This document shows positions 1-9,044 of a stretch of 9,387 nucleotides of DNA, one piece after another. The notes under the pieces are model-generated. The model was given only the letters and a program-made list of their open reading frames with translations, was not told the DNA's origin and did no database searches. Location: contig DAOVVV010000056.1 of the NCBI GenBank assembly GCA_030637025.1, positions 1 through 9,387 of the forward strand. The letters run 5' to 3'. The DNA comes from JAGLHV01 sp023143305 [NCBI: Clostridia bacterium] (GTDB taxonomy: Bacteria; CBDUZB01; JAGLHV01). The first letter of the stretch is position 1; each line of letters opens with the position of its first letter. The position numbers were made by a program, and so were the translations under genes.

Positions 1-1812
1 AGTTTTAGTGACTTCTTCTTTAAAGGCTTCATCACTTAATTTGTCCAATTCTACGCCGGTCAATGCCCGAATATCATTTTCAAAAAAACCCAATTTTTGA
101 GCAATTGCCACTGCTGTTTGTTTATGGTCACCGGTAATCATCACTGTTCTTATGCCGGCGGTTTTACATTCAGCTACCGCTTTTTTTACTTCTTCCCTGG
201 GTGGGTCAACCATTGCAATTAAACCTAAAAAAACAAGATTTTTCTCTATGGTTTCCGGGTCATAATCGGGAACGTTATTATCTAATTCCCGGTAGCTTAC
301 CGCTAAAATTCTCATTGCCTGATGGGCAAGTTCATTATTAACGTTAAGTATATTCTGCTTATCGTCCTGGCTAATTTTTTTTCGCTGACCATTTAGTTCT
401 ATTTCAGTGCAATTATCAAGCATTACATCAGGAGCTCCTTTTACAAAAGCAACTAATTTTTCTTTGTCTTTACGGATTATGGTCATTTTCTTTCTGATAG
501 AATCAAAAGGTATTTCTTCTACAAAAGGAAATTCTTCTTCAAGTTTATCTTTCCATAAACCGGATTTAGCCGCACAAACTAATAAAGAACCTTCTGTAGG
601 ATCCCCGATTATTTTATAAGAATCATCTTGCTTAATTAGTTCAGCTCCGTTACATAAGCTCCCACAGACTAAAACATTTTTTAAATCCGGATAATCGCCT
701 AAATTAACTGCCTGTTCCTTGAGTAAAAATTCTCCCTGGGGCTCATATCCTATTCCGGTCACTTTAAATAGAGTATTATTGGTAAAAACTGCCTGAACGG
801 TCATTTCATTTTTAGTGAGAGTTCCTGTTTTATCCGAGCAGATCACTGTTGAACAGCCTAATGTTTCAATAGCCGGGAGTTTTCTGATCAGGGCATTACG
901 CTTTACCATTTTTTGAACACCCAGGGCCAGCACAACAGTTACTACTGCCGGAAGTCCTTCCGGGATAGCGGCTACAGCTAAACTTACGGAGGTAAGAAAC
1001 AAATCAAAAAGATTTCCTCCGCGTAGAAATCCCAATAAAAAAACGATGGAAACAAGAACAAAACAAAAGTAAACAACAAATTTCCCAAACTGGGCTAATT
1101 TTTTTTGTAAAGGGGTATATTGCTGTTCCACCTCTTGAATCATTTCCGCAATTTTACCCAACTCAGTGTTCATCCCTGTTTCAACGATTATTGCTCTTGC
1201 TTTACCCGAAGAAACGGAGGTTCCCAGATAAAGCATATTTTTTCTATCGGCTAAGGCAACTTCTTTATCTAAAACAGCAGTAGTTTTTATCGTTGGATTA
1301 GATTCTCCGGTAAGACTTGCTTCTTGTGTGCTAAAGTTTTGAGTCATATAGACCACACGGCTATCCGCCGGGATATGGTCACCTGCCTCGATTTCTATCA
1401 GGTCACCGGGGACAAGATTTAAAGAAGGTACGATTTCATGTTTGCTTTTACGGATGACTTTGGAAAAAGGGGAGGATAATTTTTTTAAACCCTCCAGGGC
1501 TTTTTCAGCACGATATTCCTGAATAAATCCCAAAATAGCATTCAAAGTAACAATAACTGCAATGGCAATAGCATCTATCCATTCACCTAAAAAACCCGAC
1601 ACAAAAGCCGCTCCAATTAATATCCAGACGATAAAATTTTCAAATTGTTCAAAGAAAATCCGCAGAGGGGAACGGCCTTTTTTTTCTTTTAATTGATTTT
1701 GTCCATATTTTTTTAATCTGCTTATTGCTTCTTCGCTACTTAACCCGGAAGTTAAATCGCTGGCTAATATCTTGACTACTTCTTCTTTGTCTATCTGCCA
1801 CCAATGTTTCAT
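1..1812 (-). CDS. P-type cation-transporting ATPase, SERCA/PMCA-like (partial, C-terminus beyond left edge)
   Basis: ATP-driven inner-membrane cation pump, most likely exporting Ca2+. The first 604 residues are visible; the family usually has about 850-900. In order: an N-terminal cation-ATPase domain (about 4-50); M1 and M2 (about 57-99); the actuator domain with LTGES (T168-S171); M3 and M4 (about 246-296) with AAIPEGLPAV, where E285 matches the SERCA M4 calcium-ligand glutamate; the phosphorylation loop CSDKTGTLT with the phospho-acceptor at D327; the nucleotide-binding domain with KGAPD (K458); DPPR; and MITGDH (D562). The TGDGxND hinge and M5-M10 are cut off by the window. The PEGLP motif argues for a type II Ca2+-like pump rather than a heavy-metal P1B pump, which would have CPC, or a Kdp pump. 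The start ATG at 1812 follows AAAGGAAAA. No intact stop interrupts the frame. The family is certain; the ion is inferred from motifs. Confidence 0.95.
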   Translation of the reverse strand, partial: MKHWWQIDKEEVVKILASDLTSGLSSEEAISRLKKYGQNQLKEKKGRSPLRIFFEQFENFIVWILIGAAFVSGFLGEWIDAIAIAVIVTLNAILGFIQEYRAEKALEGLKKLSSPFSKVIRKSKHEIVPSLNLVPGDLIEIEAGDHIPADSRVVYMTQNFSTQEASLTGESNPTIKTTAVLDKEVALADRKNMLYLGTSVSSGKARAIIVETGMNTELGKIAEMIQEVEQQYTPLQKKLAQFGKFVVYFCFVLVSIVFLLGFLRGGNLFDLFLTSVSLAVAAIPEGLPAVVTVVLALGVQKMVKRNALIRKLPAIETLGCSTVICSDKTGTLTKNEMTVQAVFTNNTLFKVTGIGYEPQGEFLLKEQAVNLGDYPDLKNVLVCGSLCNGAELIKQDDSYKIIGDPTEGSLLVCAAKSGLWKDKLEEEFPFVEEIPFDSIRKKMTIIRKDKEKLVAFVKGAPDVMLDNCTEIELNGQRKKISQDDKQNILNVNNELAHQAMRILAVSYRELDNNVPDYDPETIEKNLVFLGLIAMVDPPREEVKKAVAECKTAGIRTVMITGDHKQTAVAIAQKLGFFENDIRALTGVELDKLSDEAFKEEVTKT

Positions 1813-2135: not shown

Positions 2136-3125
2136 TTATTCGATCAGTTGATCATAAAATTTTAAATAGCAGTCTTTTTCCGGGCTTTGTCTTAATTTAA
2201 TAGCTTCCCGGGGATGACAGTTGAGTTGGCCGGTTATCATATAGGGTATACTGTGTCCCCAGTCAAGCTGAGCTTTTAAAGGTAAAATGTCTTTTTCTAT
2301 ACATTCAATAATAGGGCGAAGGTGAAATCTTGGATTTTTAAGAAAACCAACCAGGAGTTCTAAAGGACAATTACCTGCTCCGCGTCCCAGGCCGTTTATT
2401 GTAGCATCCAGCCTGGTTGCACCGAGGATGAGGGCTTCAATAGTATTAGCATAGGCAAGCTGTTGATTGTTATGGCAATGTACACCAACTTCTTTTCCCG
2501 TTCCTTCCAGTATTGTTAGGTATTTCGTGGTTAAATTTTTTATCTGTTCGGAATAGAGTGCGCCGAAACTGTCTACTAAAAACACTGAACTTACCGGTGA
2601 TTTAGCAATAACTTCCAGTCCGTCACCGAGCTCCTTATCCTGTACAACGGAAATAGCCATTAGCTGCATGGTTGTTTCATATCCTTTATCAGTAGCGTCT
2701 TTTACAATATCCAGTGCTGCCGGAATCTGATGAATATAACAGGCTACACGAATAGTATCCAAAACGCTTTTTTCCTTAGGTAATATATCTGTGTGATAAT
2801 CTGTTCTTCCGGTATCTGCCATAGCACAAATCTTCAGGTCAGTTTTATTTTCGCCTATAGCACGGCGAATGTCGTCTTCATCACAAAACTTCCATTTTCC
2901 GAACTTGTCGGGAGCAAAAAGTTTTTTAGAGGATTTATAACCTATTTCCATATAATTTATGCCTGCACTTACCAGGGTGTCGTATACTGCTTTCACAAAT
3001 TTTTCATCATAGTTGTGATCATTAATAAGGCCTCCATCCCGAATGGTACAATCGCATACCTTAATCTGAGGCCTGTAAGTTACCCATGAATCTTTTAGTT
3101 TGTTGTTTTTTTCCTTTTCCATCAT
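2136..3125 (-). CDS. DRE-TIM metallolyase-family aldolase (HMG-CoA lyase / 4-hydroxy-2-oxovalerate aldolase-like)
   Basis: Predicted soluble cytoplasmic TIM-barrel enzyme that makes or cleaves a C-C bond next to a 2-oxo acid using a divalent metal. Visible family marks: CDCTIRDGG (D25, R29, D30), the DRE-type motif on the first strand; VDSFG (185-189); VHCHNN with the metal-ligand histidines H216 and H218; and GLGRGAGN (about 245-252). At 329 residues it is as long as the catalytic barrel plus a short tail, with no LeuA-type regulatory domain. That points to an aldolase or lyase rather than isopropylmalate or homocitrate synthase. The exact substrate cannot be read from sequence. GGAG lies 3 nt before the first ATG (3125) and 6 nt before the second (3122), so initiation may be at the second. 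No acetaldehyde dehydrogenase (DmpF-like) partner is visible. Its promoter carries paired operators (3285-3320), so it is probably tightly controlled. Confidence 0.85.
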   Translation of the reverse strand: MMEKEKNNKLKDSWVTYRPQIKVCDCTIRDGGLINDHNYDEKFVKAVYDTLVSAGINYMEIGYKSSKKLFAPDKFGKWKFCDEDDIRRAIGENKTDLKICAMADTGRTDYHTDILPKEKSVLDTIRVACYIHQIPAALDIVKDATDKGYETTMQLMAISVVQDKELGDGLEVIAKSPVSSVFLVDSFGALYSEQIKNLTTKYLTILEGTGKEVGVHCHNNQQLAYANTIEALILGATRLDATINGLGRGAGNCPLELLVGFLKNPRFHLRPIIECIEKDILPLKAQLDWGHSIPYMITGQLNCHPREAIKLRQSPEKDCYLKFYDQLIE

Positions 3126-3428: not shown

Positions 3429-6400
3429 TTAATGAGGTTTCTTGTATTGATTAATTTCTTTTGGGGTAACTAATTGGTCGGTTAAACGGAACCATTCGGT
3501 AACCAGGAGTTTCAATTGTACCGAATAAGCAATTTTATTAAACCTGTTATCTTCCTGTTTGTTGATTGCGGCAATCAAGTCATTAAGTGTTGCCTGTCCC
3601 AGTGTGTAGTTTCTTTGTTCATCTTTTAAGATGGATTGGGCTAGTTCAATACGCTCCTGGGCATTAGTTATAAGAGTTTTGGTTTTTTCTATCTGGTCAT
3701 AAAGGTTAAGCAAATCAGTATAAAGGTTAATATGCTTGTTTTTTGAAGATAATACTGCTTTTCTACGATTGACTTTGGATATTTCGTATGCCGCTTTTTC
3801 CTGTGTAGCTTTATAGGGAAACTCAAGAGAAATCATAGTATAAACAAAGCTGTCTTCATCAGTTATCCTGTATTCGGATCCATCCCGGGAATATCCAAAA
3901 CTAAGATTTAAAGAAGGGAGTAAAGCGTTTTTATCTTTGCTCAATTCCAGGCCTGATTTTTTTTCCAATAATTCCAGTATTTTAGATGTACGGCTCTTTT
4001 CTTTAAATATCGCGTATTCTTTTTCAAAGGAGCGGGTTAACCCTTTGTAAAAGGAAGGATTTTTTTCGGGTAAAAATTCTGATTTATTTTTTTCTCCGAC
4101 AGCCTGTTTAATCAGATTGTGCGTTTGGTCAAAATTGTCAGCAAGGGCGATAACACGCTCTTTTTTGGCCAGCACTTGCAGTCGTATTTTATTTACATCA
4201 ACAGCAAGGGCAATATTATTTTTCTCGCGTTTAAGCATATTATCCAGTTGTTTGAGGCTTTCCTGATAAGAAGCTTCTGCGGTTCCTAAGTTTTCATAAG
4301 CAAAGTACCAGTTATAATATAAGGTGATTAATCCAGCCAGATAATCTTCATAAGCTTCAACAATTTGATGATTGGCTACAGTTTCTTCAATACCGGTTAT
4401 TTTTTTAAGGTACCGGTTAGTTTTTCCAAAAGCATTTTCAGCCAGAGGCTGCGAAACCAAAACCGAAAAAGAGGAACTACTTTCTGTTGATGAAGGGTTT
4501 CCGGATAAATCATAGTCAATAGAAAGATTTGTGCCGATAGCAGGGAATAATTTGCCCAGGGAGACACTGTTGGTAGGGCTGGTGGTAGAATCGCCGCTAA
4601 TGATGGTATCATGCTGACTTTTCAGTGAGAATATCCAGTCTTTTACCGGGAGGGTTAAAAAACTTGTATAGGTAATGGCCAGTTGATCAATAAGAATTTC
4701 CTGAAAGGTAATATCGTTAGTGCAGACTCTGGTAACAAATTCAGGCAAAGGCAATACCTTAGGTTGGTCTGTTTCTTTCGCTTCAAGGAAAACGCTGCTG
4801 CAAAGAATTAATAACAAAAAAATAAATAAGTTTCGGGATACTAAAAATTTCTTTATGTATATTAACCTATGTTTTACATCCCTTACAAATCCATACAAAC
4901 AGGGAATTAATAATAGAGTAATAAAAGTACTAAATAAAAGACCCCAGGACATAGCCAGCATCATATCCGCCAGCATGGCATCATATCCTGCTATACCGTA
5001 TGCTGTGGGAAACAATCCGGCTACAGTGGTCAGGGTAGTAAGAATGACCGCCCGCAGTCTGGTTTTAGCAATGTGGGCAATTTGTTTATTGGATAATTCT
5101 CTATGTTGCCCCCGGTCATATTCCTTGTCCAGTTTAACCAGCATAATAATAGAATCATTTACCACGACGCCGGCAAGGCCCAGTGCCCCTATAGCTGCGA
5201 AGTAGCCTATCAGGGTAATCCCATGTGCCCAGAATGCGAAAATTATGCCCACTATTCCAAAAGGGATGGAAACCATAATCAGAAGAGGTTTAACCAGTGA
5301 GTCAAATAATAAAGAAAGAACAACATAAATGAGAAAAAGTACCATAAAAATGGCTATTTTAAAATAGTTTTGCGATTCCCGTGTTTCTTTTACCTCGCCT
5401 TCAAAGACAATACCTGCAGTCGGATATTGGGAAATTATTTGCGGAAGGACATTTTTTTCAAAATGCTCGGCAACTTCAACAGGGGTTAGATCAGTGTTTT
5501 CACTTAAATCAGCATCAATAGTAGTGGTTCGTATATAATTTTTACGTGAAATACTATTTGGGGAAATAATTTTTTTAATGTCAACGATATTTTTAAGAGG
5601 AACAAGATAATTGCTTTTATTTTCCACAGGAACATTAAGCACTTTTTTTATGTCGTCTTTGGCCTCTTCAATCGCAGTCAAGCGGACCTTAATTTCTTCA
5701 TCTTCGTGAAACACTTCATAAAGTACATTGCCCTCCAGCAGAGTCCGGAAGGTATTCTTAATGTTGGAGGGATTAATACCCAGACGTTTGATCAGTTTTC
5801 GCTTAAGGTCTACCTTATATTCAGGCCGTTTTAGAGGTCGATCAACCTCAATATTATCCAGAGCGGAAAAGCCCTCCATACTTTCAACCATCATAGCTAC
5901 TACTTTTTCCCGTACTTCGTCGTCATTTTCCTGAATAATTACTTCAATAGGACTTCCGCTGGCATGGCCAAACCGGTGTTTTTGAAAATCAAGTTTGGTA
6001 AAACCAGGAATCCCGGCCATTTTTTCCTTCCATTCCCCGATAAGTTGTTTGGATGATTTATCCCGTTTTTCTTTAGACACAAGCTCAATGCGCATCCGCA
6101 TTTTATTTTCTTCTACAGCAGATCCGCGCCTGCTCCGGGCTATCTGTGTACGAAAACCGATAACCTCTTTGCCAATATATTCAGAAAACATTTTTTCCAG
6201 TGGTTGTACCATCCGGGCAGTCTCATAGCGTTTTGTGTCCGGGTGGGCTTCACCGACAAGAGAGACCTGCATAGTTTCCTCCCTGGGAAACATCACAAAC
6301 TTCATTTTTGTCATAAAAATAAATCCGGCAAAAACCATAAGTCCGATAAATATCAGGAAAATAAGCAGTTTAAGTTTCAATATTTTTTCCATAATTTTGC

Positions 6401-8024
6401 CGTACACATCTTCAACAGAGTGAAACCAATGAATTTTTTTATTCTTTAATTCCGGAATAGGTTTATTTTTTTTATAATATTTATCAATTAGAGGAAGCAT
6501 TCCCAGGGAAAATACATTCCTGAGCCAGCGAGGTACCTGAATGTTCATATGAGAAGGAAGAATAAAAATGGATTCAAAAAGACTCCCAGCTAACATAAGA
6601 AATATTATAGGTGGAATAACCTGGTTAAACTTGCCAAACCTTCCCGGAAAGAAAAACAGGGGTATGAAAGCGACACAGGTAGTAATAATGCTGGCAATAA
6701 TAGGTAGAAGAACATAGGATGTTCCTCTTACCGTTGCCTCGTGGAAATTAATACCTTGTGCTCTTAATCTGATAATATTTTCAGCAACCACTATGGCATC
6801 GTCAACAACCATACCCATAACTATTATTACCGCTGCCAGGGTAATATTATTAATAGTAAAACCGAAAAGCGAAGAGAAAATCATAGCAAAACAGAAGGAA
6901 AAAGGTATACCCAGGGCTACGTATAGGCCTGATTTAAAATCAAGAAAAATAAAAAGCATAATCAGTATGAATATAAATCCTATAGCTCCGTTAATTTGAA
7001 CTATGGAAAGCCGGTTGCGGACAGTTATTGACTCATCATCTAAAGGGACTATTTTTATATCACTGTTTTTAAGGGTACTGTCTGCGAAACTTTTTATTTT
7101 TTTATTAACCACATCGACACTTTCTAAAATACCAGAAGAACTGCTTTTTACAACATTGAGGATAATACCTTCATGTCCGTTGATTTTAAGAATATTTTTA
7201 TTTTTTTCATAAGCATAGCTAACATCGGCAAGCTGGTTAAGTCTTATTGTCTGGCCTTCAAATCCACCTTCAATAACAAGTTGACTAAGTTTTTTGGGGT
7301 CGTCCAGTTCTGCGGAAAGGGTTACTTTTGATTCTTCTTTATCTTCAATACTGCCTGCCGGCTGGCGCACATTGTTGTTTTGGATTTCCTGCCGTACCTT
7401 ATTAAATGAAATATTATAGTGCATAAGTTTTTCCGGATAAGCATGAATTTGAATTTCTTCATCAAGATATCCGCTTCTTCCTATTTCGCTTACCTGGGGA
7501 AGGGCTAACAGTTGGTTTTCCAATACGCGAACATAACTTTGCAGCTTTTTTCTTTGGTCATAATCTAAGAGATGTTGGGTGGTATCAAACAGGGCAATAT
7601 CTATGATTGCTTTTTTAGAAGTTTTAAATTCTCTAATGCGCGGTTCATCTATCACTTCATCTGGAAGTCGTACGTCCATTACCGCATTGCGGATTTCAAT
7701 GATACACTCATCCCTGTCTGCGTAATTTTGTTCCAGCTGGACAGAAATACTGGAGCTCCCTTCATTGGATGTGCTGGATATTTCATCAATCCCGTCAATT
7801 CCTTTAATCGCATCTTCTATGGGTTTGGTGATGAAATGTTCTACTTCGCTGGGAGAGGCACCGGGATAGTAAGCAGATATTCTTACAAAATCAAACTCCA
7901 TATTGGGCAGTTCTTCTTTGGGTGTATGATGCCAGAAAAATACTCCCCCAATCAGTATAGTAAGCATAATAAAGTTAACTAATAAATGCTTTTCGGAACA
8001 ATATCTTATAATTTTTTCCCACAT
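3429..8024 (-). CDS. RND efflux transporter fused to a TolC-like outer-membrane channel
   Basis: A single 1531-residue frame carrying two pump parts. Residues 1 to about 1050 are a full-length RND permease (AcrB superfamily). TM1 is at about 13-31. The first periplasmic domain has YYPGASPSEVE. TM2-6 (about 340-490) include MGMVVDDAIVVAENI, with the proton-relay aspartates D408 and D409. TM7 is at about 552-571, followed by the second periplasmic domain. TM8-12 (about 888-1045) include GVVVNDSII (N956), where AcrB has lysine K940; this is common in other RND branches. Residues 1058-1082 read as a signal peptide: KK, R, a hydrophobic stretch and FLEA. Residues 1083-1531 (449 aa) are a TolC/OEP-family channel with two repeats of beta-hairpin and long helices; LLPSLNLSFGYS and YTLGQATLNDLIAA are typical. 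RND permeases are normally about 1030 residues with the channel encoded separately. The ATG at 8024 follows AAAAGGAAA. No internal ATG, GTG or TTG precedes the signal-like segment. No adaptor gene is adjacent. The substrate is unknown. Confidence 0.93.
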   Translation of the reverse strand: MWEKIIRYCSEKHLLVNFIMLTILIGGVFFWHHTPKEELPNMEFDFVRISAYYPGASPSEVEHFITKPIEDAIKGIDGIDEISSTSNEGSSSISVQLEQNYADRDECIIEIRNAVMDVRLPDEVIDEPRIREFKTSKKAIIDIALFDTTQHLLDYDQRKKLQSYVRVLENQLLALPQVSEIGRSGYLDEEIQIHAYPEKLMHYNISFNKVRQEIQNNNVRQPAGSIEDKEESKVTLSAELDDPKKLSQLVIEGGFEGQTIRLNQLADVSYAYEKNKNILKINGHEGIILNVVKSSSSGILESVDVVNKKIKSFADSTLKNSDIKIVPLDDESITVRNRLSIVQINGAIGFIFILIMLFIFLDFKSGLYVALGIPFSFCFAMIFSSLFGFTINNITLAAVIIVMGMVVDDAIVVAENIIRLRAQGINFHEATVRGTSYVLLPIIASIITTCVAFIPLFFFPGRFGKFNQVIPPIIFLMLAGSLFESIFILPSHMNIQVPRWLRNVFSLGMLPLIDKYYKKNKPIPELKNKKIHWFHSVEDVYGKIMEKILKLKLLIFLIFIGLMVFAGFIFMTKMKFVMFPREETMQVSLVGEAHPDTKRYETARMVQPLEKMFSEYIGKEVIGFRTQIARSRRGSAVEENKMRMRIELVSKEKRDKSSKQLIGEWKEKMAGIPGFTKLDFQKHRFGHASGSPIEVIIQENDDEVREKVVAMMVESMEGFSALDNIEVDRPLKRPEYKVDLKRKLIKRLGINPSNIKNTFRTLLEGNVLYEVFHEDEEIKVRLTAIEEAKDDIKKVLNVPVENKSNYLVPLKNIVDIKKIISPNSISRKNYIRTTTIDADLSENTDLTPVEVAEHFEKNVLPQIISQYPTAGIVFEGEVKETRESQNYFKIAIFMVLFLIYVVLSLLFDSLVKPLLIMVSIPFGIVGIIFAFWAHGITLIGYFAAIGALGLAGVVVNDSIIMLVKLDKEYDRGQHRELSNKQIAHIAKTRLRAVILTTLTTVAGLFPTAYGIAGYDAMLADMMLAMSWGLLFSTFITLLLIPCLYGFVRDVKHRLIYIKKFLVSRNLFIFLLLILCSSVFLEAKETDQPKVLPLPEFVTRVCTNDITFQEILIDQLAITYTSFLTLPVKDWIFSLKSQHDTIISGDSTTSPTNSVSLGKLFPAIGTNLSIDYDLSGNPSSTESSSSFSVLVSQPLAENAFGKTNRYLKKITGIEETVANHQIVEAYEDYLAGLITLYYNWYFAYENLGTAEASYQESLKQLDNMLKREKNNIALAVDVNKIRLQVLAKKERVIALADNFDQTHNLIKQAVGEKNKSEFLPEKNPSFYKGLTRSFEKEYAIFKEKSRTSKILELLEKKSGLELSKDKNALLPSLNLSFGYSRDGSEYRITDEDSFVYTMISLEFPYKATQEKAAYEISKVNRRKAVLSSKNKHINLYTDLLNLYDQIEKTKTLITNAQERIELAQSILKDEQRNYTLGQATLNDLIAAINKQEDNRFNKIAYSVQLKLLVTEWFRLTDQLVTPKEINQYKKPH

Positions 8025-8630: not shown

Positions 8631-8672
8631 ATAAAACACAAAAATGGCAATGGAGAAAAAGGAGCTATGGTA

Positions 8673-9044
8673 ATGTCTGATATGACCAAAGGGCAAATCG
8701 AGGCCCAGATTAGTGAAGCGATAATAAAGTTTGAAAAGGAATATATGGGTAGAGGACCTATGGAAACCAAGACCTATATCATAAAGGATATGGTTTTTGT
8801 TCGGCTTAAAGGTGTTCTTACGCCTGCTGAGGAACAATTAGCCAAGACTGCTGAAGGATCAGATCTGATAAAAAAGACACGCGTTCAATTATTAGAGGGT
8901 GCAAGACTTTTATTGGAGAATATTATTTCGGAGATCACAGGTTGTCAGATAAAGAGCTTGCATACAGATATAAGCACAAAAACTGGAGAAAGAGTTATTA
9001 TTTTTACATTAGACCGGAATTTAGAAGATAAATTAAAAACATAA
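8673..9044 (+). CDS. DUF2294 / MpsC-family protein
   Basis: A small soluble protein of 123 residues covering the whole DUF2294 domain, a family now named after MpsC of the staphylococcal Na+-translocating, membrane-potential-generating MpsABC system. Recognisable stretches are GRGP (near 26), IIKDMVFVRLKGVLTPAEEQ (36-55), a central helix with LIKKTRVQLLEGAR, and the family signature HTDISTKTGERVIIFTLD (97-114). No signal peptide or membrane segment is seen. Two in-frame ATGs are possible, at 8667 and 8673. AAGGAG (8659-8664) is only 2 nt from the first but 8 nt from the second, so 8673 was chosen. It has its own strong promoter and is not next to MpsA- or MpsB-like genes, at least within this window. 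The biochemical role of stand-alone members is not established. No obvious terminator follows before the next promoter. Confidence 0.9.
   Translation: MSDMTKGQIEAQISEAIIKFEKEYMGRGPMETKTYIIKDMVFVRLKGVLTPAEEQLAKTAEGSDLIKKTRVQLLEGARLLLENIISEITGCQIKSLHTDISTKTGERVIIFTLDRNLEDKLKT

What the first reader, a model, noticed from the sequence alone, without database searches (positions are those of the whole stretch)
3429..8024. RND permease and TolC-type outer-membrane channel encoded as one polypeptide
Two parts of a tripartite efflux pump, normally separate proteins in different membranes, sit in one uninterrupted 1531-codon frame. Both halves look complete: D408/D409 and 12 membrane segments in the first, and two OEP repeats in the second. 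Inner- and outer-membrane parts would then be tied in a fixed 3:3 ratio. I recall fusions of this kind among long CusA/CzcA-type proteins of Bacteroidetes. This one is not obviously of the heavy-metal type, and its D-D/N-D motif set suggests another RND branch.
Basis: partly seen in the sequence, partly recalled or inferred. Interest (0 to 1): 0.78.

Follow-up and report, generated by a model that had tools for sequence, protein, structure and literature searches.

The report
One-gene efflux pump, internal signal peptide
A single bacterial gene encodes both the inner-membrane pump and the outer-membrane channel of an efflux machine, and a signal-peptide-like stretch left at the join suggests that the cell cuts the product into two normal parts instead of using one giant tethered protein.

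Summary
Window 3429-8024 (-) is one open frame of 1531 codons with a full RND permease (residues 8-1047) and a TolC-family channel (two OEP stretches). It is not an assembly slip: two other species of the genus carry the same fusion (88% and 93% identical), both halves are under purifying selection, and the only indel at the join is 3 bases. The next relatives (G534, G036) have two overlapping genes. RND-channel fusions are already common in Bacteroidota, in the CusA/CzcA branch; the window's pump lies in another branch, so the fusion probably arose separately. At the join (about 1058-1082) lies a signal-peptide-like stretch ending V/L-E-A|K-E. Bacteroidota-set fusions also keep the channel's signal peptide: 81 of 89 located junctions have [AGS]-Q right after a hydrophobic run, against 1 of 119 windows around RND membrane helices. 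I read these genes as polyproteins cut by signal peptidase I; the cutting itself is untested. The window's RND branch is usually linked to a channel gene and not to an adaptor gene (20 of 28 loci). Structure prediction failed (mean pLDDT 39 and 31).

The parts
4884..8024 (-). RND permease half, residues 1-1047 (ACR_tran), D408/D409 in TM4, N-D in place of the AcrB K940 site
4779..4853 (-). Signal-peptide-like segment at the join, residues 1058-1082: KK, hydrophobic run 1066-1080, then L-E-A; proposed signal peptidase I cut after A1082 (between bases 4779 and 4778)
   Evidence: alignment of three species keeps a hydrophobic run and E-A-K-E; no ATG or GTG codon nearby; cutting is inferred
3432..4778 (-). 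Outer-membrane factor (TolC family) half, residues 1083-1531, two OEP stretches, best 1341-1515; stop codon at 3429-3431

Best explanation
The gene is a polyprotein precursor of an efflux pump. The RND permease is made first; the chain then runs into a further hydrophobic segment, which is the old signal peptide of the outer-membrane factor. This segment inserts N-in/C-out, the channel part is exported, and signal peptidase I cuts after A1082. The permease stays in the inner membrane and the 449-residue channel goes to the outer membrane, made 1:1. The fusion probably arose from an overlapping RND-OMF gene pair in which an indel bypassed the permease stop and the channel start. Shown: the fused frame, its conservation in three species, the signal-like segment, split overlapping relatives. 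Inferred: insertion, cutting, equal dosage, pump function.
For: Fused frame in three species with both halves under purifying selection while the linker diverges but stays open and keeps a hydrophobic run plus E-A-K-E. Signal peptidase I (PF10502) found in 5 of 5 genomes searched; Omp85 in 2 of 3 genus genomes, so there is an outer membrane to reach. Nearest split relatives G534 and G036 have RND then OMF, overlapping by 19 and 4 nt, the OMF with its own signal-like N-terminus. In the parallel Bacteroidota fusions 81 of 89 located junctions (90 loci fetched) carry [AGS]Q right after a hydrophobic run; on the first 82 located, 74, against 4.5% of shuffled junctions and 1 of 119 windows around RND helices.
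Against: No cleavage was observed. The [AGS]Q rule does not describe the window genus, whose site is E-A|K-E; there the case rests on three aligned sequences. A lax signal-peptide rule also passed 133 of 165 RND helix windows, and a strict A-then-polar rule gave 69 of 82 junctions against 28 of 165 helix windows, and 10 of 14 junctions in the complete proteins. In the AQ control the plasmid junction window (68 aa) was longer than the helix windows (56 aa). No SignalP-type program was available.
Confidence: 0.72

Rival explanations
1. The chain is not cut. The extra hydrophobic segment is a plain membrane anchor and the channel stays tethered to its permease, a covalently joined 3:3 pump.
For: One unbroken frame in three species. 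RND membrane helices can look like signal peptides under lax rules (133 of 165), so a signal-like look alone proves little.
Against: A signal-peptide end is kept at the join in the Bacteroidota set far above the controls. Recalled geometry, not computed here: the channel's N-terminal region lies far from the inner membrane in known pumps, and the roughly 20 residues between the segment and the first OMF helix seem too short to bridge that.
Confidence: 0.14
2. Two products arise because ribosomes also start inside the frame, just before the channel's signal peptide.
For: 29 of 78 Bacteroidota-set junctions have a Met within 14 aa before the hydrophobic run; the ArgH-OMF frames in G002 and G003 have an ATG there; G002 has a TTG in the linker.
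Against: No ATG or GTG in the junction of the window, G002 or G003, and the window's only TTG there lies inside the hydrophobic run. 49 of 78 Bacteroidota-set junctions lack such a Met.
Confidence: 0.06
3. The segment is a lipoprotein signal cut by signal peptidase II at the conserved Cys (C1075).
For: The Cys is invariant in the three species; some outer-membrane factors such as OprM are lipoproteins (recalled).
Against: The residue before it is L, L or F, not the A, G or S of a usual lipobox (recalled rule).
Confidence: 0.05
4. The fusion is an assembly or frameshift error, or a dying gene.
For: The genus carriers with a title are metagenome assemblies; no reads were available.
Against: Contigs of three species agree; dN/dS about 0.11-0.14 in both halves and the only indel at the join is 3 nt.
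Confidence: 0.03

Closest known systems
CusA/CzcA-type RND proteins of Bacteroidota with a C-terminal TolC domain (e.g. WP_264563277.1, Flavobacterium sp. N2155)
   Same: RND permease followed in one frame by an OEP channel, with a signal-peptide-like segment at the join
   Different: Heavy-metal (HME) branch of RND; TM4 has D-G where the window has D-D; an adaptor gene lies directly downstream in 11 of 11 plasmid regions fetched, one of which (L108) is a split pair; the join ends A-x-A|Q and not E-A|K
Split RND-OMF gene pairs of the window's own RND branch (G534/L176, G036/L068)
   Same: Closest RND relatives (51% and 44%), same gene order, no adaptor gene found beside them
   Different: Two genes overlapping by 19 and 4 nt
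Classical tripartite pumps AcrAB-TolC, MdtABC-TolC, CusCBA
   Same: RND fold family and TolC-family channel
   Different: Separate genes, adaptor present; the AcrB K940 site is N in the window; AcrB, MdtB, MdtC and CusA fall outside the window's group in the tree
FbcH cytochrome b/c1 precursor of Bradyrhizobium (recalled, not found)
   Same: Works alike: a membrane protein, then an internal signal peptide, then an exported protein, separated by signal peptidase
   Different: Unrelated proteins; there the second product stays at the inner membrane

Membership tests
RND permease (PF00873) | Full-length ACR_tran domain with the TM4 Asp pair | tested here: met
   8-1047, 518.7 bits; D408/D409
HAE-1 multidrug branch (AcrB, MdtBC) | Grouping with AcrB/MdtB/MdtC in a tree; Lys at the K940 site | tested here: not met
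   Outside the 31-row group of the window at 100/100, with long branches; N in place of K940
HME heavy-metal branch (CusA/CzcA) | Grouping with CusA; CusA metal-binding Met triad 573/623/672 | tested here: not met
   CusA and the HME fusions group elsewhere; V, K, R at the three Met columns of a rough alignment
Outer-membrane factor, TolC family (PF02321) | Two OEP repeats and relation to TolC-type structures | tested here: met
   Two stretches; profile of 18 OMFs finds CmeC 4mt4 and TolC 1ek9
Outer-membrane factor, TolC family (PF02321) | Trimeric channel fold | tested here: inconclusive
   AlphaFold2 mean pLDDT 39.2 with three sequences
Bacteroidota CusA/CzcA-OMF fusions | HME-type RND half with adaptor gene next to it | tested here: not met
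   Branch differs; no adaptor among the window's scanned proteins
Polyprotein cut by signal peptidase (FbcH-like) | Internal signal peptide between two proteins | tested here: met
   By sequence only: join in three species, Bacteroidota set
Polyprotein cut by signal peptidase (FbcH-like) | Observed separation into two proteins | not testable with these tools
   Needs protein data

The most novel reading that the evidence does not exclude
A whole trans-envelope pump is encoded by one gene: the window's RND branch works with its channel without a periplasmic adaptor, and in this genus both parts come from one polyprotein that is cut in two. More broadly, RND-OMF fusions arose at least twice and each time kept a cleavable internal signal peptide.
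Probability: 0.2. Interest if true: 0.8.

Novelty: new variant of a known kind. Interest (0 to 1): 0.52.

Why it matters
If right, many proteins annotated as one CusA/CzcA transporter of about 1450 aa are precursors of two proteins, and their topology and stoichiometry should be read differently. RND-OMF fusions would be a class of bacterial polyproteins that supplies an inner-membrane and an outer-membrane part from one gene. The adaptor-poor RND-OMF branch would let one test whether an RND pump can work with a channel without an adaptor.

Tried and rejected
Structure prediction of the OMF half plus join (A3) and of the RND half (A4), with only the window and the two search for related loci sequences as the tool requires, gave mean pLDDT 39.2 and 30.6. 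No fold search was run on them and nothing is drawn from them.

A lax signal-peptide rule passed 78 of 82 junctions and 17.7% of shuffled ones, but also 133 of 165 RND helix windows, so it was dropped. A strict A-then-polar rule gave 69 of 82 junctions, 8.1% of shuffled ones and 28 of 165 helix windows. The [AGS]Q rule was written after seeing the junctions; it gave 74 of 82 and 81 of 89 after seven more junctions were located.

Long open frames elsewhere were checked as possible further fusions. G051: RND of 1426 aa without OEP. G524, G670, G412: judged from ORF lengths and ends only, as an N-terminal extension in an overlapping frame, two separate RND genes, and a 1278-aa RND. A recoded stop codon was thought of because of the ArgH-OMF frames and set aside without a test.

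Paper searches for such fusions, for an internal signal peptide and for adaptor-less RND pumps showed nothing that describes them (listings; no papers). In PMC8277102 and PMC11213822 I saw found passages only. A search for the MAG names gave unrelated papers. The library lacks most subscription journals, so this does not show absence in print.

Full report
What is there. The minus-strand frame 3429-8024 runs 1531 codons from ATG to stop. It holds a full ACR_tran domain (8-1047) and an OEP domain in two stretches, best 1341-1515. D408/D409 align with AcrB D407/D408; the AcrB K940 position is N, followed by D. Against solved structures by sequence, the whole protein is nearest to CmeB (196 bits), and a profile of 18 OMFs led by this one finds CmeC and TolC.

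Is the frame real? The nearest held genome, G001, shares 100% of the window's sampled 31-mers. Its contig C33 carries residues 1-1140, across the join, and C28 carries 1177-1531. Two other species of the genus carry the whole fusion: G003/L037 (1531 aa, 93%) and G002/L036 (1518 aa, 88%). NG86 dN/dS values for window-G003 and window-G002: RND half 0.024/0.191 and 0.059/0.557; OMF half 0.043/0.342 and 0.059/0.428; junction 1048-1080 0.329/0.455 and 0.298/0.847. The only indel at the join is 3 nt. An assembly error or a dead gene is very unlikely, though no reads were mapped.

The join. After the last RND helix the window reads KHRLIYIKKFLVSRNLFIFLLLILCSSVFLEA-KETDQPKV. L037 and L036 have different linkers but keep a hydrophobic run and then V-L-V-E-A-K-E. 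This has the shape of an OMF signal peptide with a signal peptidase I site. No ATG or GTG lies in the junction of any of the three; G002 alone has a TTG in the linker before the hydrophobic run, and the window's TTG lies inside the run. Signal peptidase I is found in 5 of 5 genomes searched: G001-G003, G534, G036. The genus looks diderm: Omp85 in 2 of 3 genomes (G003, 86% complete, gave none) and OEP proteins in 3 of 3, although one record is titled 'Clostridia bacterium'. The 60 relatives drawn held three genomes of this genus and otherwise only 'same domain' ones, so the lineage is isolated among the genomes held; I could not name it.

How it arose. The nearest RND relatives found, in G534 (51%) and G036 (44% over the RND half), are two genes in the same order, overlapping by 19 and 4 nt. 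In the tree the three fusions group together, with L176, L068 and L072 as successive neighbours (supports 100/100, 100/99, 100/99, 100/100). An indel in such an overlap would give the fusion and leave the signal peptide in place; this is inference. In a wide draw of 386 genomes searched with the RND tail plus OMF, every listed match that covers both halves in one unbroken frame was in this genus; the list is cut at the best rows, and G006 covers both halves with one stop between. In 60 genomes searched with the whole protein one further fused gene appeared, in G056, and it is of the HME type. No plasmid record covers 80% of the window protein among the 5000 counted.

The known parallel. Bacteroidota have many such fusions in the CusA/CzcA branch. 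With the G056 protein as query, 51 plasmid records have one place that covers at least 80% of it; the 5000-record limit was reached. In 296 genomes of a phylum reached through a record titled 'Bacteroidetes bacterium', unbroken frames of over 1400 aa fill most of the upper part of the list. I fetched 90 such loci, the 30 best and 60 more picked from the listed rows, not all that are listed. 82 junctions were located at once and 89 in the end; L244 was not. [AGS]Q directly after a hydrophobic run is present in 81 of 89. Controls on the first 82 (74 positive): 4.5% of shuffled junctions, and 1 of 119 windows around RND helices in ten plasmid fusions, whose own junctions were positive in 10 of 10 with a longer window. 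By eye the eight negatives also look like signal peptides. Of nine further loci fetched, six (L280-L285) are split pairs that overlap by 4 to 110 nt when the first possible start is used; their OMFs have a signal-like N-terminus ending in A-Q or S-Q in five and A-T-E in one; two are fused and one is broken. So fusions seem to keep the channel's own signal peptide, in two RND branches.

Mechanism. I commit to a polyprotein: permease, internal signal peptide, channel, cut by signal peptidase I. The precedent I know, the FbcH cytochrome b/c1 precursor, is recalled and was not found in the library. Cutting is not shown here. Looser signal-peptide rules were much less specific than the AQ rule, and the AQ rule does not fit the window genus, where the case rests on three sequences. 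An internal start cannot be excluded for the 29 of 78 Bacteroidota-set junctions with a Met before the run.

Which RND branch, and the adaptor. The tree puts the window in a 31-row group (100/100) apart from AcrB, MdtB, MdtC, CusA and the HME fusions; several rows have long branches, AcrB most of all. I read 29 loci with RND, OMF and MFP seeds; 28 hold an RND whose best seed is the window's. In 20 of 28 an OMF gene is adjacent and no adaptor was found in the stretch. L274 has an OMF, with an adaptor-RND operon upstream; L271 and L277 have an adaptor directly upstream; L072, L187, L260, L266 and L272 have neither. The stretches differ in length, some end at contig ends, and the search was phmmer at E 1e-3, so adaptors can be missed; it did find them at L071, L271, L274 and L277. 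The genus has few adaptors. TIGR01730 finds one protein in G001 (CusB-like, beside its own RND), one in G002 besides a match next to what by eye is a biotin carboxylase gene, and none in G003. PF16576 finds only the G001 one in the genus. PF13533 finds none in G001 or G003 and two weak ones in G002. RND genes number about three or four per genome. G534 and G036 do have adaptors elsewhere, so an adaptor acting in trans is possible. An adaptor-less pump is a lead, not a result.

Verdict. A real, conserved gene fusion, a new variant of a known kind.

Noticed in passing
L066:2063-4750 (G002) and L067:340-3006 (G003): Argininosuccinate lyase and a TolC-family OMF stand in one open frame (895 and 888 aa) in two species of the genus, with a signal-like stretch and an in-frame ATG at the join. 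A cytoplasmic enzyme in frame with an outer-membrane channel is odd and may be the same kind of event.
   Followed up: partly
L068, L070, L176, L179, L181, L182, L261-L265, L267-L270, L273, L275, L276, L278, L279: Twenty loci with an RND of the window's branch beside an OMF gene and no adaptor gene found in the fetched stretch, from diverse families.
   Followed up: partly
L064:1045-5406 (G056), L184:2345-6766 (G066), G068:C43: Three of nine genomes of another small phylum also carry CusA/CzcA-type RND-OMF fusions.
   Followed up: partly
L071:3077-7645 (G006): RND and OMF genes in the same frame, with a stop and a few codons between them, like a step before fusion; this locus does have an adaptor gene.
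   Followed up: no
L036:7897-8946 and L037:5120-6130: Downstream of the fusion in G002 and G003 lie a 207-aa and a 128-141-aa protein that by eye look like a nucleotidyltransferase/HEPN pair; not scanned.
   Followed up: no
window 1-1812 (-), 2136-3125 (-), 8667-9044 (+): Neighbours are, by eye, the N-terminal part of a cation P-type ATPase, an HMGL-like aldolase and an MpsC-family protein; none is an adaptor.
   Followed up: no
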